The notes beneath the pieces are model-generated. The model saw only the letters and a list, made by a program, of their open reading frames with translations. It had not been told where the DNA came from and searched no databases. 64,000 nucleotides of DNA from Paramacrobiotus metropolitanus (lineage: Eukaryota > Tardigrada > Eutardigrada > Parachela > Macrobiotidae), in contig NW_026570241.1 of the NCBI RefSeq assembly GCF_019649055.1, positions 1 to 64,000 of the forward strand, written 5' to 3'. This document shows positions 32,471 to 52,626 of this stretch, piece by piece. Each line of letters begins with the position of its first letter. Within the stretch, counting starts at the first letter, position 1. A program made the position numbers and the translations under genes.

Positions 32471-33021
32471 AAAGTCTATGCAACCTTTTCTCACTTAACA
32501 ATCTGTTCCCGGTTTCCAAAATTTGTTCTGCTTTTCTGATGTTGGGCTGCATCAATGAAACTAGTACTGTACCTCACAAGGCTCATATAATTACTTACTA
32601 GTATAAAGGTCGTAACCGCCCTTAGTGCAAGCGAGCGAGCGTGTAAATTTTTCTCTTATAAAACCCATAATATGGAAGCGTTAGTCCGTTGCATACCGCT
32701 ATTGACAAAATTCTGACTTAACCATGCAAAGGCCAACTGAAACTTTATTCAGATTATGTAGGAACACTATATTTAAACGGTAAATACTGTACGTGGAATT
32801 ATCCAAATCCGCCTATTTGCATACAACATACTCAGTAAAACAACAAAGGAGACTCAGATTTTTTATTAGATTTAAAACAAACAGGCATGATTGTCCTACA
32901 CAAATTCACCGAAAGGGAAGAAAATAATTCACGAAAACTGAAAAGTACTAAGTTGAAGCGATAGTGCCTATTACATCAGCGGAAATATATCTCAACCGGA
33001 AATTCAACATCAGATACAGAG

Positions 33022-36000
33022 GTGCCTAAATCGATGAGGCAAGTCAACCTAAAGAAAAATCCAATTATTGTTGCCTGGTTTTTCCAAGAAAGACTAAAGC
33101 TCTTTTTCGACAAAATTTTGAAGCCACTTTTCAAAGTAAAAGATTTTTGGGGTCGATATGAAGACCAACATAGAGGGTCTTTGCATTTTCATGGCTTTCT
33201 TTGGCTGGAGGACGCTCCTTCTGCAAAGTCTATGGACAGCCGATCTGAAGAAGAGCTAAAGCAAGTTGCTACCTACTTTGATAAACTTATAACTGCGGTA
33301 AACGACATGAATAGGGTGAGCAAGGATATGCAGATTCATCCGTGCGCACGACCTTTATTAGAAGTGGACAACTCGATGGAGGATTTGTACACAATGCTCA
33401 CTCTTGTACAGAGGCATACACAGCATGGAAGTCATTGTTTCAAAAAAGAAAAATCCGGAAATCTTATTTGTCGCTTTCGTTTCCCAAGGGAGAATCGAGA
33501 TGCGGCCGTTGTTATCCGGGACGATAAAGGTTATTGGCAGTTTGAACCAGAGCGGAACGACACACTGATGACTCCCTATAATCCAACAGTTTCACAAAAC
33601 TGGAGAGCTAACACTGATGTCACCGCAATCCTGAGCATGCGTTTGCTTATGTCATACCTGACGAAGTACGTGACCAAGGCGGCAAAAAGATCGGAAAGCT
33701 TCGCCGAGATGCTTGCAAAATTTGTATCCCGTGCAGATGAGCAAGATCCTGCTAGGAAGCCGCTACAGCAGCTGCTAATGGCGACTTTCGGAGAACGCGA
33801 TGTTTCAGCCCAGGAAGTAGCAGTTCTCGTTATGGGTTGGCGATTAGTGGAATCCAGCAGAACCTTTATCGTTATAAACTTGTACGAAGCTCGCCGTAGT
33901 CAGCACTTACGGAAACCGAAACACGCATCCGATGAAACTGTATCCGATCCAAACGTAATATCTCGATACAAAAACCGTCCTGAAGATCTTGAAGCCGTTT
34001 CACTAAAGGTGTTTGCCACTGCATTTCAGTATAACAAAAAGACTAATACATATCAGAAAAGAATTCCTGGAAAGGAATACATCGCGCGCGTCATACCCGT
34101 TTTACCTGTAGACATAAATTCAGAACTGTATTGTCGTCAGTGGCTTCTTTTGAACGTGCCGTTTAGAGCAGAGGGTGACTGTAAATTGTCGCCTGAAGAA
34201 ACATACCAAGAAGCTTTTGCCCGCTTGCGTCCGCAAGGTTTGGCTGGAGAAAACATTGAAACAGACTTGGACAAAGACCCAGAAGATGAATTAGAAAGTT
34301 TGGAATTACCAGAAAATGAGCAACTCAACTGGATGCAAGCAGCAGCTATGGCGCCGACTGAAATGGTTGATCCGAAATCGGCCACCGAGCTAGGCAGGCG
34401 CGAAATCGATCTGGCAGAAGATTGGGGCAAAGCACTACGGGTTTTTCCTCCAGACGTTTGTCCCAAAAATTTCATCGAAGTGGTCAAAGCCGACGGAATA
34501 TCACAGTTCCGACGAGTTGCTATAAGCTACGACACCTTAAGTACAGAACAGAAACAAGTGGCGGATCTTTTTTCCCATCATTTTACAGCCGTTTCTCAAA
34601 AACGAGTTCTACGACCGTTGCGACTGATAGTTAATGGCAATGCAGGTAAATTACGCATTATTATTTAAATTTTACGGCACGTTTGCTTAATCATCATTGC
34701 TGCAGGAACGGGAAAGTCATACATCATAAACTGGATCATGGAAGCGACGCAGAAGATGAATACATCCACAAGTCCAAAGGCAGTTCTCTGTGCACCTTCT
34801 GGAGTTGCAGCTTTTTTAGTAAACGGCCAAACAATTCATTCGAAATTTCATATACCACCTCGAAAGGGAGGAAAACCAATACGTGATCTTTCAGGAGAAA
34901 ATTTACGACAATTTCAAGAAGGTTTCGCAAATACTGATTACATAATTATTGACGAATACGGGATGGTGGGTTGTCGACTGTTCGCCATGCTCGATAAACG
35001 GTGTCGGGAAGCGAAGCCGTTGAAATGCGCAGAGCCATTTGGCGGAATGTCTGTCATTCTCGTTGGTGATCACGGGCAACTGGGTCCTGTCATGGACCTT
35101 CCACTATTTGTGTCAACAAATTACGGCAGTACAAACATGGAAGTTCAGCATGCAATGCGTCTCTACAGAGGCTTCGACCAAGCTGTAATATTGAAAACAC
35201 CCCAGCGGCAGATTGGACAGGACCACACAGCCGAACGATACAGGCAGTGTCTTTTGAATATGCGCGTTGGTCGAACAACAATAGACGACTGGAAACTTCT
35301 TTGCTCTCGGTTCATAGACAACCTTAGTGATGCAGAAAAATCGGAGTTTTTGGACTATCCTCGAATTTATTCGATCAACGATAAGGCTGATGAATACAAT
35401 TTACGCAAACTTTCGGAGTTAAATGTGCCCGTTGCTCGGATAGAAGCGTCACACAAAGGCCCTAACGCAAAAGCAGCTTCATACGATGATGCAGGTGGAC
35501 TGGACCCAGTTATTTCTTTGTCTGTAGGTGCTGTAGTTATGCTAAACTGTAATTTGTGGACGGAAGCAGGTTTAGTCAACGGCGCCACGGGAACTTTTTT
35601 AGCCCTGTTATACGAAACTGATTTTGCGCCGCCATCGATTCCGCTGGCAGTTCTGGTGAAATTTCCTGGATATCGCGGACCAAGCTTTGGTGGTATCGAA
35701 AATTGTGTGCCTGTTCCTCCGGTGGTTCGCAGCTGGGACTCAAGTGACAATAAGCCATGCTCCCGAACACAAATTCCGTTGTCACTGGCGTTTGCGCGAA
35801 CAATACACAAAACCCAAGGTGCGACTTTAGGAACAGTGAACATATTCCTCGGCGAAAAGGAATTCGCTTGCGGATTAAGCTTTGTCGGATCTTCGCGCGT
35901 CAAGCGTTTGACAGACATGGTTTTTGGTGAACCGTTTAATTTTGATCGCTTGCCTCAAATTGCTAAAAGTAAGGCTTTGCAACAACGGGTTGCTGAAGAT

Positions 36001-37015
36001 GCACGACTGATGCAGTTAGGATACTCTGTCCAACGGCTAGAGCTTATCCTAGAAGAACCTCGGAACAAATCTGCACCAGTTACCGGTAAGGTTTTATCTT
36101 CCAGGACTATTTAAACTTTCCAAAATATTATTACTGCATATAAATGAATTAAGCTTTCCATCCACTGAGCGTTGTAAGTACACATGGTTTATAGGTTTAT
36201 AAAAAACGATTTTTGTAGGGTTGCATCAGGATGCCCATATGAAATCCCCAGAAAAATCACCAAGAAACATCAGTGCGGTATCGCAAGGTAATTAGTTACC
36301 CTAGGCAGAAGCGTACACACACAAACAAAACAAAAGTTTCATTCCAACTTAATTTTCAGAAAAGTCAAAGAGCAAACGCTCCTTCGCAAACGTTCTCACA
36401 ACTCCGTTTAAAGAATGTGTGGGAACAAAGTCTCGCAGGCGAAGTAGTCCTCCAAGGCTGTTACTCCCATCTTTTGAGCCAAATTCAAGGCAAGCGCACG
36501 AAGGACTTCCAAGGTTGCCGTTACAACATGGAAACCTTCCGCTTTTACGTGGAGCAGGCCAGCAGAATGTCGACCTTGCGGAATCCGAGCTTGCGAGACT
36601 GGGACTACGACGCATCCCAGTTGATGGCGACGGAAACTGCTTATTCAGAGCGGTGGCTTACGCAGTATACGGAGATGCAGCAAAATACAGGAAGGTTCGG
36701 GATGACGCTGTCCGCATTATGTGTCAAAACGCTGCAGAGCTGCATAATTTTTACGCATATGAAACGGGAGACCGTTTGGAGTCAGGCCACCATCGAGAAC
36801 CAAGAAGCATCGCGGATGACCTGGACGCTGTGAGACAGCCTGGACAATGGGCATCGCATATTCAGCTTTTTGCCTTATCCCGAGCGTATGAGAGAACAAT
36901 ATTTGTCATCAATGGTCGAGTTACCGAACAAGTAACTGAACCTTTTTCTGGCGAGCCAATTTATTTAATTTACAACGGTCGAGACCATTATTCTGCAACC
37001 CGTTTAAACCGCTAA
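33022..37015 (+). CDS. Helitron transposase: HUH Rep, PIF1 helicase, OTU protease
   Basis: Four exons, 33022-34645, 34706-36085, 36219-36287 and 36360-37015, join in frame to 1242 codons. The first exon stays open back to a stop at 32962, and I see no upstream ATG in it. The Rep HUH motif is SLHFHGFLW (His55, His57). The two-tyrosine motif YLTKYVTK begins at about residue 211. The PIF1 helicase Walker A GNAGTGKS (near residue 542) is split by the 60-bp first intron. Walker B YIIIDEYGM, VGDHGQLGP and the late AFARTIHKTQGAT motif follow. The C-terminal OTU domain shows DGDGNCLFRA (Asp1113, Cys1118) and HYSATRL (His1234), a complete catalytic set. Rep nicks and joins single strands during rolling-circle transposition, the helicase unwinds, and the role of OTU is unknown. 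N-terminal truncation makes autonomy doubtful. Confidence 0.85.
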
Positions 37016-37159
37016 ACTCGTTTTCGAATTTCGCCGTCTTTTAGTACTTCAGCTATTTTATCATTAAAGCCAAATTAAAAAATAAGGCGTACTTGAACAA
37101 TCAAAGGCATGATCAGAATACAACAAAATTGTAATGCGGTATCAGCTGGTCTGAATTAC

Positions 37160-38455
37160 CGGACCCCCCGTATATTACTACGGCGGGTTCGTCAATAATG
37201 ACCCGGTTATAATTTACGTTACGGTTCCCCAAAACTGCACCAACCGGGGGCCGTTAAAAAAATCCGGACCGGGTCCAAATTTCCGGACCCCCCGTATATT
37301 ACTACGGCGGGTTCGTCAATAATGACCCGGTTATAATTTGCGTTACGGTTCACCAAAACTGCACCAACTGAGGGCCGTTAAAAAAATCCGGACCGGGTCC
37401 AAATTTCCGGACCCCCCGTATATTACTACGGCGGGTTCGTCAATAATGACCCAGTTATAATTTACGTTACGGTTCCCCAAAACTGCACCAACCGGGGGCC
37501 GTTAAAAAAATCCGGACCGGGTCCAAATTTCCGGACCCCCGTATACTACTACGGCGGGTTCGTCAATAATGACCCGGTTATAATTTACGTTACGGTTCCC
37601 CAAAACTGCACCAACCGGGGGCCGTTAAAAAAATCCGGACCGGGTCCAAATTTCCGGACCCCCGTATATTACTACGGCGGGTTCGTCAATAATGACCCAG
37701 TTATAATTTACGTTACGGTTCCCCAAAACTGCACCAACCGGGGGCCGTTAAAAAAATCCGGACCGGGTCCAAATTTCCGGACCCCCCGCATATTACTACG
37801 GCGGGTTCGTCAATAATGACCCAGTTATAATTTACGTTACGGTTCCCCAAAACTGCACCAACCGGGGGCCGTTAAAAAAATCCGGACCGGGTCCAAATTC
37901 CGGACCCCGTATATTACTACGGCGGGTTCGTCAATAATGACCCGGTTATAATTTACGTTACGGTTCCCCCAAAACTGCACCAACCGGGGCCGTTAAAAAA
38001 TCCGGACCGGGTCCAAATTTCCGGACCCCGTATATTACTACGGCGGGTTCGTCAATAATGACCCAGTTATAATTTACGTTACGGTTCCCCAAAACTGCAC
38101 CAACCGGGGCCGTTAAAAAAATCCGGACCGGGTCCAATTTCCGGACCCCGTATATTACTACGGCGGGTTCGTCAATAATGACCCGGTTATAATTTACGTT
38201 ACGGTTCCCCAAAACTGCACCAACCGGGGGCCGTTAAAAAAATCCGGACCGGGTCCAAATTTCCGGACCCCCCGTATATTACTACGGCGGGTTCGTCAAT
38301 AATGACCCAGTTATAATTTACGTTACGGTTCCCCAAAACGGCACCAACCGGGGGCCGTTAAAAAAATCCGGACCGGGTCCAAATTTCCGGACCCCCCGTA
38401 TATCACTACGGCGGGTTCGTCAATAATGACCCGGTTATAATTTACGTTACGGTTT
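37160..38455 (+). repeat. Tandem array, about 11 units of roughly 122 bp
   Basis: Units start with GGACCCCCCGTATATTACTA and contain GGCGGGTTCGTCAATAATGA, CGTTACGGTTCCCCAAAACT and GGCCGTTAAAAAAATCCGGA. The GTTCGTCAATAATG word recurs at intervals of 119-126 bp from about 37187 to 38415. Units are nearly identical, differing by single bases and C-run length. A strongly diverged partial unit follows to about 38570. It lies between the OTU stop codon and the hairpins, inside the Helitron, where tandem arrays are known in non-autonomous Helentron relatives. Confidence 0.9.
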
Positions 38456-45987: not shown

Positions 45988-47015
45988 GTCAGGTTTTGCG
46001 AGGGGCTCAATCAATGCAAATGATGGGCAACTCAATGCACATGAAACGAGGTTATTACGTATGCTAACGTTATCACAAAAAAATTAAAACTAACTGGTAA
46101 ATTAACTACTTATCAAAAGTAGTTTTGTTTTGATATTTAAAAGATATTCAACTGTACGGGTGTGACGGTGTCCGCTCCAAACTTCCAAACGAATAGAGTT
46201 CAATAGACGACGCTATTATCGGAAAAAAAATTAATTTAAGCGACCCGGATGTGCAGTAGTACATACTCGCAATTTCGCCAATTTGGAAGCAGGTAGAACA
46301 TAGTCAGTCGAAGCTACTCTAGTAAGTAGAAGGAAAACACAAAGTAGGTTATTGTAGTCTCTAATGGTAATCAAGAAAGAGTTTATCATTTACTATTAAC
46401 GGGAATTTAACCCTGTTGTCATCTACTGGCAATGGCCAATGGTGAACCAGTAAAATTGATTTAAGCTACTGAATCACGGATGATTAATTTCAGTGCAAAG
46501 GTTTTGTAGTCATAACTCATAAGCAAGAATACGACCGTATGAGCCACCCGATCAAAACTTGTTGATTTTTTTCGACTATTCCAACCGTTCTACTGTTTTG
46601 GCATACTACTGCAATATGTAATAAATTATTTTTACGGGCTGATAAAGTGTGGAGATTGCGTAGAACGGAATATGTATACCGGCATATGCATTATTAAGCA
46701 TTTAAAGTAGCATTTCCTTACTACGTATTACTTATTGGATTCTCCATCTACTCGTATGTACGCACCACGCAGTGAGTACTAATAAAGGTAAGTTCTAACA
46801 ATAATAATAATTGTCATACAGTGTAAGTACTAGTAACATTGCACAACCGCAAGACCTCCACCAAGCAAACAAATCGATTGACCAGAAATAACTTTCTTTT
46901 TAAGATTAAACACCTTGTACAAGCCTACCTAATGTGTTGAGGATCGGTGTTAGCTGAGCCGTAAAGTACTATATATAGTATAGTATGTGAACGTGTAGTA
47001 TAGTATGTGAACGTG
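45988..47015. other. Intergenic between the Kelch gene and the MULE
   Basis: About 1 kb including the Kelch promoter side. No gene is supported. AACGTGTAGTATAGTATGTG-type short repeats lie just outside the MULE target duplication. Confidence 0.45.
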
Positions 47016-47024
47016 TTCGGTTGG
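47016..47024 (+). repeat. 9-bp target-site duplication, left
   Basis: TTCGGTTGG, repeated exactly at 52618-52626 on the other side of the MULE. The 9-bp length is characteristic of Mutator-like transposition. Confidence 0.88.
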
Positions 47025-47234
47025 GGCCCGCGCCGAAGCTCGGACTTGGATTCGGAGTCGGATTACTCAAACTTGGACTTGGATTACTCAAACTTGGACT
47101 TGGATTCGGAGTCGGATTACTCAAACTTGAACTTGGATTACTCAAACTTGGACTTGGATTCGGAGTCGGATTACTCAAACTTGGACTTGGATTACTCAAA
47201 CTTGGACTTGGATTCGGAGTCGGATTACTCAAAC
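47025..47234 (+). repeat. MULE left terminal inverted repeat (54-bp minisatellite)
   Basis: The unit is GATTCGGAGTCG followed by two copies of GATTACTCAAACTTGGACTTG. It matches the reverse complement of 52408-52617 at 209 of 210 positions, including a shared variant AACTTGAACTTG in one unit. The minisatellite continues a little further on this side only, to about 47277. Confidence 0.92.
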
Positions 47235-47280
47235 TTGGACTTGGATTACTCAAACTTGGATTTGGAGTCGGATTACTCGG

Positions 47281-48477
47281 ATTTCTTATGCTTAACTACG
47301 CAAGTTCGTAACATAGATTTCTTTAGGGACGCTGTTCCTCAAGCACGACACTTGCTGTGCGTGTTACACGTCAAGGAAAATCTCAAAAGAGTGCTCGCCA
47401 ATGATTTTTCTTTCTGTGACGAGGAAGAACGGAAAAAAACTGTTGATGACATTTTTGGTGTTACTTTAACGCGGCAGAATACGTATACCGAAGGGCTGGG
47501 TTGATGCAGTTTCCACTCAAGATTTCAATGAGCGGCTTGAATTTTTGAAAACAGTCTGGGAAGAAAGACCTCCTGGGTTTAGTGCCCGGTATTTCACTCC
47601 GGAGCGTGAATCCAATTACATCCATAAGGTAATACTGGAAGCACGTCAGCCAGCTGGATTTGGGGACAGACTCTCTCATAACAACACCACTGAGGCGGCC
47701 AATTCCATGATAAGACAAAAACTTGAACCGAAAGCGAAAAATGCTCTGACCGATTTGGAAATTATTCGTGAACTCAAGCGCTTATTTCTGCATCACGAGC
47801 GTTCAATGGCAGAGAGCATTGTTGGTCGAGGAGAATACCGCCGAAAAAATGTCGACTTAATGACCTGCAGTACATCGTTGCTGTTTCAGAACCGCGCACT
47901 CAAAACGTGTTACATGGAGATTTTTGGTATGATCCCAGACACCGATTTATTACAACATCTAAAGCCAGCAACGGCGGATATAGTTGCCATATCGGATTCT
48001 GTAAGCGAATTTCCCATCGCTTTCCACGAGTCGAATTTGTCAGAAGATTACCGTTCGCATTGGAACGCTGCACGCATGATTCATCAGCATCGGCGCATTA
48101 ACAAAAAAGCAGAAACGCGTACTGGCAACACCGTTAGTGTTGATTATGCCATTCAGGGGCCGAAGGAACGCGTGGAGCGGGTAGTCACCTGGAAGTGCGG
48201 GCCATGCGAAGTTGGCTGTCGGTGCGATCAATTTCGGTCAAAAGGCATGTGTTGCCATTCACTTGCGGTGGCAGCGGCTGCATACAGTTTGACCGATTAT
48301 TTGGAAAGTTTCAGCAAGAGAAAGAGACTGTATCGAGCTGTTGTTCGCCCAACTTCGAAAAATGCCGGAAGCAAACCGAAGGGCACTCGTCGTAGGGTGA
48401 AGGACCGGAAAGCAGCGGAAGGTGCACTCATCCGCAAAGGGCGAATCGGCCGTAAGGGCATCTTCAGAGTACTCTAA
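47281..48477 (+). pseudogene. MULE transposase C-terminal part with SWIM zinc finger
   Basis: The end of a MULE DDE transposase: ARHLLCVLHVKENLKRVL is the conserved cysteine/histidine segment late in the catalytic domain. About 280 residues later comes the SWIM finger CRCDQFRSKGMCCHSLAVA (CxC...CxH), then a basic tail. The upstream DDE core and DNA-binding N terminus are absent; the frame runs straight out of the left inverted repeat, which points to an internal deletion. At 47498-47502 one extra G in CTGGGTTG stops the frame after YTEGL; without it the frame continues VDAVSTQDF to the stop at 48477. The transposase would cut and rejoin the inverted repeats, but this copy looks inactive. Confidence 0.8.
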
Positions 48478-51400
48478 CGCTACTTCGCTGAGTACAAGTT
48501 GACTGCTGCACTTATTATACATACTTTAGTACGTGGGTATTCTGTCGCTCTGATGAATACAGTTCCTATATTCTCCATTTCCAAATTTCGCTATTACTGA
48601 AATAGGAAACAGACAGTGTTGCGATCTCAGACAACTTTTAATAAATTTAACAAACCAAAAATATGTTTCTGATAAATAACTTATTTTTATTGAAGTTCTA
48701 ACGTTTTCTGGGCAAACAGCATCGTCAGATTCGCGCTTCGCGCGACGTCTCCGACTCTCCATTGACCCAACGAAATGTTTACTATCATTTGCAAACTACC
48801 TAACTGACGCACGCACGCCACAATAAAATCAGCAGTAGATTGGTAGCTGGACATTCAAAACTTTCACAATGCAAGCTAGTACGAAAGTATCAAAATAGTC
48901 AATTATGCTTTGCTGTTATCCATATTCGTTGCAGTTTGCAGCGAACTATGATACGGGACGCCGATTGCTGTTCAATACTACGTTTTGCAAGGCAGCTCTT
49001 GGTATTCTAAAGAGATTTTGATTTAGGTCATGTCTTTCTTTGTAAATAGTAGGCGCATCCAGTTGTAAATTTTGAACTGTAATGTAATAACGTACTCGTA
49101 ATTGTGGAACAAATCATGTACGACAGAAGAGCTTATAACAAAGTGCATACCGTGTTACTGTCGGCGTCCGTGACTACGCACATAGGCACTGCACGGTGAA
49201 CACAAAACTGGCCGGATTTTACTTTGGTACGAAATTGACCATAGGTGTAGTTTAGTTCTACACAGGATGAATTTCCGTAGGATTGTTAGTCAGGAAAAAC
49301 TGAAAAATGTCCACGTTACCTATACGTAGTATCCTTGTTACTGTGAAACTTACTCACTTAACCCATAATTTATCAGCGAAAAGACAGTTAATTACAGTAC
49401 GGGTTCTGCGAATTTTGTTTAACAAAATGACTACTCTACCAAGTACTAATTTACCAGCTATCGCTTGTTAGTGCAGTACATGATGTGCTAGAAAGCCAAG
49501 AAAAAATGAACAGACGCGAGGATCTCTGTAATACAGCCGATTCTGTGAAATGAAGTCACGTGAGAATTTGTGTAAAACAATTACAATATTTCTGGATTTC
49601 TGTAATACAGCCATGACTACCGCGTTCGTTTTCGGGATGGATCCTGGAGCGGCCACTTATGAGGAGGGTCTGATGGCGGTGGCCGCCCATGAAAGCATGC
49701 AACTGACACCATTTCAACTTGCATCACGCACCGTAGAAAAAACTGTGCGCCGCAGGATTAATATCTGTAACTATTCCAAAATTATGGCACATGAAAAAAT
49801 CTGTCAGAAACCGGTCGGTTGCATAAAAGCTGGGAAACTATAAAAGTTACGATCAATTCAAAATTATAAAGAAAATTCAAATTAAAACGCCGTGCTCACA
49901 GCCAACACCCGTGCGGACCCAAGAAAAGGTCACCCGTGCACACAGTCATACACCCGCGCCCGAACTCCGTGCACACAGCCAACACCAGTGCAAGCACCTG
50001 TGCACGCAGCATCGATCTATCAATTCTTATACATCCTGTATAAGCAGCTGTATATTATGTCTCGTATGTATGTAGCGTATTTTTGTGAGCGAGTCTCGTC
50101 TCTGCAACTTTAGATATTGCATGTTAATAATGTTAGTGTGCCGCATTATGATTTTTGCTATGTACACTAACAATAAACTTATTTAAACGGTAGTATTCTT
50201 TATTAGCTTGAAGCGCGCTCCAGAATTGTACGGCAATCATGTATTCAACCAATTACTTCGCATCGCATTGTAGCGGACAAGCCTCCTTGGGAAACGAGTG
50301 TCGGACCCTTCATGCTTTGCGGCGTTAGCGGTGGCGATGGCTTGAAGTTATACGCTGGATACCAATGTTGCGGCTGCCGCACGCCATTTTCCCAACAAGC
50401 ACCGCAACTCGGACTTATTCTCGTAAGAAGCGAGCCGAATTTTGTTCATGGAAAAACTGCCATATCGCCGCCAAGGGATTGCGCCCACCACCTGCAGATT
50501 GGACGTGTGCGACGTCGTCATCTGGAGATTAGCCTGGATAATCATCGATTCGGCGAAGGGATCGTGAAGGAAATTGCCTTGACCGAAGAGCAAAAGAATT
50601 TGGTCATGATTTTTATGGAAAGCATTCCATCTGTCGTGCCGTTCCGCACATGAGTCTTCAGGAAATGCAGTGTTTCGTATGCCTTTTGATACGTTGACAG
50701 TTGGGAGTATCGTGCACCATAGGTTTCTTGCTTTGTATCAACCATAATTTCTGTCTTCAGTTAATATTTTTTTAAAAATGCCAAAAAATCAGTTAAGTTT
50801 AAAATTTAGGAGGGCCAGCGTGTTTTATTATAGCGGCCGTTGCTTAAGCTTGCTTTCAAAATTTCCGCAGCAGATTAATTTACGCGTGCCTTTTCCCCTC
50901 ATTTGTAGGATGGGTTTTTTGCCGCATAAAACGCCAATAGAAAAGATAAAGGTGAATACGAGTATGTATTATGCTTATTTAGAATTTCTGATTTTCATGT
51001 AGGTATAGACCTTGTACAATTACGGTAGCTGGCTCGGTTGGCCACGAAAGAGCGATTGACTCGGTGAACCCTTTAAGCTGGGCGACACCGTTTGCATTCG
51101 CTGATCTGGAAATGTTTGGAAAAGTTAAACCGACTCGAGAAAAATTGTAGTAAGACTTCATTACACTCACATGCATATCGAGAATTGTTTACGTGGTCAG
51201 GAAGAGCCGTAGCTGTGCCGGGAAAACCAATGCTGCAGCCCCACATGTACAGCGACGTTAAAATGTTGTATTGTAGTCCCTCGCGAGGGTGGCTAAAGGG
51301 ATTTGGGACGGTACAAAGGACCAAATTTGTGTACAATCTGAGCTTCTGTACAACCTAAGTTTGCCCAGTCTGTACAACTTGAGTTCGCCCAGTCCCGAAC

Positions 51401-52407
51401 ACGTTTTTGTATTGTTTTCTGATTTATCATATTTTGTAGCCGAAAGAGTTGCATACATAGGAGCGAAATCTGTTTGCGCGAGCAACATCCGGCTGGAAAG
51501 TCATGGTTGAATCAAAATGCCAAACCAAACGAAAAACAGGAACTAGCCCAGGTGCAATGCAAAAGAACCGCTTTTTCACGTTCGAAAATTTTGAAATTTC
51601 GAATTTCAACATTTTGAATTTTGTTTTGATCACTACAGACCACTGAAAAACCAATAAAAACACGTTGTGACATCTGCAGCTGTTCATCTCGCACGCTTTA
51701 TGGCAGGGCGGTGTAAGTGACCGGTTACCAAAATACGAAGCCGCGTACTTACAGTGACCGAAAAATGAATATCAGAATTTTGACTTCCTCGCCGTAAAAA
51801 ACAACAGGTTTGGAGTGACAATTTTGCTTAATTTTTTCCTTAACTTTTGACTCAGCGCTTAGGTGATCGTGTTTCGAAACGCTTCCAGCATGTGCGTTTG
51901 AGCTTAAAAAGCAGTCTGTAAAGATTACCGCAGAAGTGATCAGCAAAGTTTAAGACAAAAAAGTTTAAAGTCAGCAAAGTTCAAAACATCAGCAAAGTTT
52001 AAAGTTTAACATTGTGACAAAGTAACCTGCCACATTGCGGCGGTTCTTTACTCAGAATGCGCAGCAGACTTGAGCCGTTGTTTAAAAAATTCGAACCGAC
52101 TCTGTATTAAGCTGGCTGATGAAAAGTGTAACGTATTCTTAAAACTTACAACGAGCGGCGACAATTTGGTATTACAAGACGGCTAAAGTGCGTCCTCACG
52201 TACTTCAGCCGTTCAGCGAAGCTTCGCACATTCCGTAGCGTATGTGTATGTCTCCTGTTCGCGTTTCGCCCGATGCGAAATTTCTGTAATTGGCAATTTT
52301 GCGACATGCAATGGAACGTCTGTGACGGCCGGATCAGTTGTCCCAGAGTGCAAGCTGAGTGGTCCAAGTCCGAGTTAGCAGTCCAAGTCCAAGTAATCGG
52401 ATTCAAA
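48478..52407. other. MULE interior without recognised cargo
   Basis: 3.9 kb. The longest plausible frames are 49550-49843 (97 codons) and 50312-50653 (113 codons, with CCGCRTPF). Neither matches a family I know. Low-complexity spots include CACACAGCCAACACC repeats near 49897-49995 and AGCAAAGTTTAAA repeats near 51940-52010. It could be filler captured by the element, or remnants of the missing transposase half. Confidence 0.4.
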
Positions 52408-52617
52408 GTTTGAGTAATCCGACTCCGAATCCAAGTCCAAGTTTGAGTAATCCAAGTCCAAGTTTGAGTAATCCGACTCCGAATCCAAGTCCAAGTTTGA
52501 GTAATCCAAGTTCAAGTTTGAGTAATCCGACTCCGAATCCAAGTCCAAGTTTGAGTAATCCAAGTCCAAGTTTGAGTAATCCGACTCCGAATCCAAGTCC
52601 GAGCTTCAGCGCGGGCC
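52408..52617 (-). repeat. MULE right terminal inverted repeat (54-bp minisatellite)
   Basis: Reverse complement of 47025-47234 with one mismatch (T for C at position 10 from the outer end). Just inside it the two ends lose similarity abruptly. Confidence 0.92.
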
Positions 52618-52626
52618 TTCGGTTGG
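52618..52626 (+). repeat. 9-bp target-site duplication, right
   Basis: TTCGGTTGG, identical to 47016-47024 and directly abutting the outer end GCGCGGGCC of the right inverted repeat. Confidence 0.88.

What the first reader, a model, noticed from the sequence alone, without database searches (positions are those of the whole stretch)
47016..52626. Recent MULE with 210-bp inverted ends made of a 54-bp minisatellite
A perfect 9-bp duplication (TTCGGTTGG) directly abuts inverted repeats that agree at 209 of 210 positions. Beyond an 18-bp outer end, the inverted repeats are entirely a 54-bp minisatellite built from a 21-bp and a 12-bp word. Even an internal variant unit (AACTTGAACTTG) is shared, so the ends are copied or homogenised together. 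Tandem repeats as terminal inverted repeats could offer several transposase-binding sites and allow ends to change length.
Basis: partly seen in the sequence, partly recalled or inferred. Interest (0 to 1): 0.75.

Follow-up and report, generated by a model that had tools for sequence, protein, structure and literature searches.

The report
Foldback-type Mutator transposon, deletion derivative
This is a shortened copy of a jumping gene of the Mutator/Foldback kind, whose two mirror-image ends are built from repeated short words that may act as landing sites for its enzyme; the kind is already known from insects and nematodes, and this family is a well-preserved new example.

Summary
A 5,593-bp element (47025-52617) is flanked by a perfect 9-bp duplication. 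Its arms agree at 211 of the first 212 positions and are tandem words beyond the outer end. The outer end occurs 594 times in the host genome against 17 for the reversed control. Of 48 two-ended copies, 30 have a perfect 9-bp duplication and 36 at most one mismatch. All 68 places found for the 26-bp repeat word lie 29-263 bp from an outer end. Unit number varies between copies and arms. Two relatives of 17.7 and 19.8 kb carry an upstream transposase exon that the window copy lost with about 10.5 kb; the window copy is non-autonomous, and both long copies have broken frames too. Arm homogenisation is real here but exceptional: partner arms are nearest in 3 of 16 elements. The MULE link is indirect, through relatives. 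This is a Mutator/Foldback family like Tm1 of root-knot nematodes (PMC3169594): a new member of a known kind. Its best feature is a short core word (AACTTGGA) in 91 of 96 arms, although groups of copies space it differently.

The parts
47016..47024 (.). left target site duplication TTCGGTTGG
52618..52626 (.). right target site duplication TTCGGTTGG
47025..47041 (+). left outer end GGCCCGCGCCGAAGCTC (other copies mostly have T at position 10)
47042..47272 (+). left arm, 54-bp tandem array of 15-, 6- and 12-bp words
47025..47236 (+). stretch of the left arm matching the right arm at 211 of 212 positions (homogenised tract)
47306..47306 (.). junction of the ~10.5-kb internal deletion relative to C59:505443-523167 (C59a)
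47306..48445 (+). transposase exon B: C..H and SWIM-type CxC..CxH region, frame shifted near 47500 (ORFs 47004-47504 and 47470-48477)
48447..48903 (+). dispersed repeat nested in the element, absent from C59a; the reading frame runs into it
50207..50650 (+). conserved downstream coding segment (CxxC...HH), probably a late exon of the transposase gene
52380..52600 (-). right arm, 54-bp tandem array
52601..52617 (-). right outer end GGCCCGCGCTGAAGCTC

Best explanation
A non-autonomous deletion derivative of a Mutator-superfamily (MULE) cut-and-paste transposon of Foldback architecture. A transposase encoded by the longer relatives (17.7 and 19.8 kb, themselves with broken frames in this assembly) recognised the outer end together with an array of a repeated core word (AACTTGGA) in each arm, cut, and inserted with a 9-bp staggered target, leaving a 9-bp duplication. 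Because the arms are tandem arrays, slippage, unequal exchange and conversion change unit number; in this copy one arm was copied onto the other. Shown: structure, 9-bp duplications at many copies, unit-number variation, the coding relatives, the missing exon. Inferred: mobilisation in trans, binding to the core word, and conversion as the cause of arm identity.
For: Perfect 9-bp duplications in 30 of 48 two-ended copies, 36 with at most one mismatch; in the 32-copy set exact matches occur at 9 bp only, none at 7, 8 or 10-12. 594 outer ends against 17 in the control. All 68 word places lie 29-263 bp from an outer end. Colinear with C59:505443-523167 and C59:239980-259778, with about 10.5 kb missing here. 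Those two carry an upstream exon with two MULE-like acidic positions (read by eye); exon B carries a C..H and a glutamate. Distant relatives found with the same exons match PF10551 MULE (E 2.8e-5, 6.7e-5, 2e-4), and at C253 the six-frame search gives 28.4 bits, over the cut-off. dN 0.033 against dS 0.258 between window and C59b exon B. AACTTGGA in 91 of 96 arms.
Against: Exons of this very family give no Pfam MULE match, and SWIM only below the cut-off at E 0.21; none of the 39 PF10551 matches in the genome lies in the window element or its C59 relatives. The link is through relatives at 23-35% identity; single ORFs of these score below the MULE cut-off, and the C253 match over the cut-off reads through a stop. 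12 of 48 copies lack a duplication within one mismatch. No plainly intact coding copy was seen. No empty site was found. No binding data exist for this transposase.
Confidence: 0.86

Rival explanations
1. A Foldback-like element driven by a non-Mutator transposase, as Galileo is by a P-type transposase; the MULE-like exons are merely cargo.
For: Foldback ends arise in several superfamilies (PMC3169594 discussion part read). Own exons lack a direct Pfam MULE match.
Against: Both long copies carry the same exons in the same order; transposase codons are constrained; duplications are 9 bp, within the 8-11 bp given for MULEs (passage of PMC6446971).
Confidence: 0.08
2. The arms are so alike because the element is newly inserted and was formed with identical ends, without conversion.
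For: Perfect duplication and one mismatch in 212.
Against: The inner flanks of the two arms are arm-specific and match opposite ends of C59a, whose own arms agree at 184 of 212 alignment columns; the near-identity falls off after position 212.
Confidence: 0.25
3. An independent minisatellite that happened to expand at transposon ends, with no role in transposition.
For: Tandem arrays expand by themselves; copy number of the word differs between the two arms in 11 of 16 and 25 of 32 elements.
Against: All 68 word places found are 29-263 bp from outer ends, and AACTTGGA survives in 91 of 96 arms while its spacing differs between groups of copies.
Confidence: 0.2

Closest known systems
Tm1 Mutator/Foldback family of Meloidogyne (PMC3169594)
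   Same: 9-bp duplications; composite arms of a short end motif plus 1-9 units of a tandem word; unit number differs between ends; MITE-like and deletion derivatives; MULE transposase; arms of one element average 93% identity
   Different: Tm1 word is about 14 bp, its putative autonomous copy 2.6 kb with a FLYWCH domain, 39 and 22 elements in two species; here the words form a 54-bp unit, long copies are 17.7-19.8 kb, a SWIM-type motif, 594 outer ends
Rehavkus (table and passages of PMC6446971)
   Same: 9-bp duplication, inverted ends of 26-400 bp, minisatellite
   Different: [quoted passage not shown] here it forms both arms, and no PHD match was found in the exons scanned
Tetris of Drosophila virilis (PMC4079207, passages)
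   Same: Foldback structure with internal tandem repeats, 8-10 bp duplications, repeats grouping by element in two of three complete copies
   Different: TIR-220 repeats, no transposase known
Galileo (PMC3688188 abstract; PMC3573991 passages)
   Same: long internally repetitive ends, repeat-number differences between the two ends, multiple transposase-binding sites located in the tandem repeats
   Different: P-superfamily transposase with a THAP domain
Drosophila FB/NOF (recalled; FB seen only as cited in the papers read)
   Same: tandem-repeat inverted ends, 9-bp duplication (recalled)
   Different: sequence relation to NOF not tested

Membership tests
Mutator superfamily (MULE) | 8-11 bp, commonly 9 bp, target site duplication | tested here: met
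   30 of 48 perfect at 9 bp, 36 with at most one mismatch; in the 32-copy set none exact at 7, 8, 10-12
Mutator superfamily (MULE) | MULE DDE transposase domain (PF10551) | tested here: inconclusive
   no match in own exons or at the window/C59 loci; relatives E 2.8e-5 to 2e-4, below cut-off; C253 over cut-off in a frame with one stop
Mutator superfamily (MULE) | long terminal inverted repeats | tested here: met
Foldback-type architecture | inverted repeats built of tandem repeats, length varying between copies and between the two ends | tested here: met
   2-10 core words per arm in 16 close copies, arms differ in 11 of 16; arms differ in 25 of 32 others; word strings
Phantom / Tm1 | N-terminal FLYWCH zinc finger | tested here: inconclusive
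   not matched in the exon A ORF; further upstream exons not delimited
Rehavkus | PHD finger in the transposase | tested here: inconclusive
   no PHD match in exons A, B or the downstream segment; unmapped exons remain possible
Galileo / P superfamily | THAP domain and P-type transposase | tested here: inconclusive
   no such match in exons A, B and the downstream segment; unmapped exons remain possible
Autonomous element | complete transposase gene in the window copy | tested here: not met
   exon A absent, frame shifted near 47500, nested repeat at 48447

The most novel reading that the evidence does not exclude
The arms are arrays of transposase-binding sites under selection for number, not for unit sequence: groups of copies keep one short core word (AACTTGGA, running on as AACTTGGACTTGG in 62 of 96 arms) but repackage it into different tandem units (commonest spacings 21 and 33 bp in one group, 31, 25 and 22 in another), while arm-to-arm conversion occasionally resets both ends. 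Binding-site number at each end would then set which copies are mobilised.
Probability: 0.35. Interest if true: 0.5.

Novelty: new member of a known kind. Interest (0 to 1): 0.36.

Why it matters
Foldback elements were first described in 1980 (as cited in PMC4079207), but a family with long coding copies, hundreds of outer ends and several forms of the end in one assembly is useful. It lets one ask whether tandem ends are kept because they hold several transposase-binding sites, as footprinting indicated for Galileo (PMC3688188 abstract), and how often the two ends convert each other.

Tried and rejected
Pfam on the window ORFs gave no MULE hit; the link came only through longer copies and distant relatives. 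The search for an empty site with joined flanks found only the two flanks themselves; a single assembly cannot show polymorphism. General homogenisation of arms was tested and rejected as a family rule: partner nearest in 3 of 16. A minisatellite living apart from the transposon was rejected. Rfam gave no match in the window. No relation to Drosophila NOF could be tested, as no NOF sequence is held. The host species was not established.

Rows and choices: the 16 first copies are the window copy plus 15 chosen because one search listed both ends. The 40 additional loci were picked by me from the roughly 100 listed of 594 ends, all with 0-1 mismatches at the listed end and 7 of them with both ends listed, so intact copies are over-represented. 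8 of these 40 had no second end in the fetched stretch. L059/L060 and L075/L076 are duplicated loci sharing one duplication each: in the 48 copies counted for duplications L059 and L060 count as two and L075/L076 are left out; in the 48 elements one of each pair is used. The shuffle is a single composition shuffle of each arm.

Full report
What is there. The element spans 47025-52617 (5,593 bp) between two copies of TTCGGTTGG. The arms agree at 211 of the first 212 positions; seven further mismatches follow by position 236. Inside a 17-bp outer end, GGCCCGCGCYGAAGCTC, the arms are made of three words of 15, 6 and 12 bases that form the 54-bp unit.

It is a family. The 19-base outer end with up to three mismatches occurs 307+287 times in the 169.8-Mb host assembly, against 10+7 for the reversed pattern. 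I examined 16 two-ended copies: the window copy and 15 whose two ends were both in the list. I added 40 loci picked from the listing, of which 32 had a second end in the fetched stretch. Perfect 9-bp duplications flank 11 of the 16 and 19 of the 32; allowing one mismatch, 13 of 16 and 23 of 32. Together that is 30 and 36 of 48, the duplicated pair L059/L060 counting as two. In the set of 32, exact agreement next to the ends occurs at 9 bp only, not at 7, 8, 10, 11 or 12. Pairing left flanks with right flanks of other copies gave 2 perfect matches in 992, both from the duplicated pair.

The repeat word stays with the ends. A 26-base word with up to one mismatch occurs at 68 places, 0 in the control. 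All 68 lie 29-263 bp from an outer end: 61 inside the 16 copies above, 2 in the two C240 copies, and 5 beside a single detected end at C5, C41, C58 and C205.

Length changes while the duplication does not. In 16 close copies (the set above with L075 in place of L017) an arm carries 2 to 10 copies of AACTTGGA, and the two arms differ in 11 of 16; in the other 32 copies, mostly with a slightly different outer end, an arm carries 0 to 8 and the arms differ in 25. Within positions 20-200 of each arm, AACTTGGA is found in 91 of 96 arms of 48 elements, against 1 of 96 in one composition shuffle; the longer AACTTGGACTTGG is in 62 of 96. The commonest spacings differ: 21 and 33 bp in the first set, 31, 25 and 22 bp in the second. 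So the short core is kept while the larger unit is rebuilt. That it is a transposase-binding site is inference; for Galileo, binding sites in such repeats were reported after footprinting (abstract of PMC3688188).

Homogenisation. In most copies the partner arm is not the closest arm. It is so in 3 of 16: the window copy, L017 and L024. Several small copies keep two distinct arm types, each closer to arms of other copies. In the window copy the tract of near-identity is bounded. Beyond it, the left arm matches one end of C59a and the right arm the other, and C59a's own arms agree at 184 of 212 alignment columns. I therefore read the identity as a copying of one arm onto the other. It dates that event, not the insertion.

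The coding part. Two copies on contig C59, 17,725 and 19,799 bp, are colinear with the window copy. They carry an upstream exon with two acidic positions in MULE-like surroundings (YFDVLYTVS and VFVSDEQPAL, read by eye), missing here: about 10.5 kb between C59a positions 234 and 10738 is gone, with the junction at window 47306. Neither long copy is plainly intact: the upstream exon is one open frame in C59a but split in C59b, and exon B is one open frame in C59b but split in C59a. The window keeps exon B, with C..H, a glutamate in NNTTEAAN and a SWIM-type CxC..CxH pattern (motif names recalled). Its frame is shifted near 47500 and runs into a nested repeat at 48447-48903. A third coding segment at 50207-50650 recurs at 17 places, the window included; at 12 of the 17 it lies 0.4-2.9 kb downstream of a transposase match on the same strand, and it is probably a late exon. 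Between window and C59b, dN is 0.033 and dS 0.258 over 318 codons of exon B, with 15, 9 and 47 differences at codon positions 1, 2 and 3, so these copies descend from a lineage with a working transposase. In the third segment the constraint is weaker: dN/dS 0.047/0.189 against C59b and only 0.030/0.061 against C59a.

Membership. Direct Pfam scans of this family's exons give no MULE match and a SWIM match below the cut-off, and none of the 39 PF10551 matches in the genome lies in the window element or the C59 copies. More distant relatives found with the same exons (23-35% identity) match PF10551 in 3 of 8 pieces scanned, at 2.8e-5, 6.7e-5 and 2e-4, all below the curated cut-off. One of them, C253, exceeds it at 28.4 bits in the six-frame search, in a frame with one stop, and its SWIM match exceeds the cut-off. 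With the 9-bp duplication and the long ends I file it as Mutator superfamily with Foldback architecture; on rechecking the calls I lowered that confidence slightly, from 0.88 to 0.86.

Comparison. The closest described case is Tm1 of root-knot nematodes, with 1-9 tandem units per arm, unequal ends, 9-bp duplications, MITE-like and deletion derivatives (PMC3169594: abstract, section 9, parts of Results and Discussion). The Discussion part read also says that Foldback ends arise with different classes of transposase. Rehavkus also combines a 9-bp duplication with a minisatellite (passages of PMC6446971), but a PHD finger was not found in the exons scanned. A 2026 survey gives 1.4-10.0 kb for arthropod MULEs (abstract of PMC13359780), so the two long copies are large; how much of that is nested repeats I did not measure.

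What is not shown. There is no empty site, no binding or mobility data, and no species name. My six literature searches listed no paper that I recognised as describing this family, but without the host name that is weak evidence.

Noticed in passing
window 32965-37015: Helitron-type ORFs (PF14214, PF05970) followed by an OTU protease ORF (PF02338), ending just before a 124-bp tandem array at 37154-38454.
   Followed up: no
window 48447-48903 and 49596-50015: Two dispersed repeats inside the element, each matching many other contigs at about 69-91% identity; the first is absent from C59a.
   Followed up: partly
L059 and L060 (C38); L075 and L076 (C240): Pairs of copies sharing the same 9-bp duplication, so probably duplicated with their surroundings and not separately inserted.
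   Followed up: partly
L014 and L016: Copies with two different outer ends, GAACCTTGG on one side and GAAGCTCGG on the other, both with perfect duplications: mixed ends seem able to transpose together.
   Followed up: no
window 50207-50650: A conserved CxxC...HH coding segment without a Pfam match, at 12 of 17 places downstream of a transposase match in this genome.
   Followed up: partly
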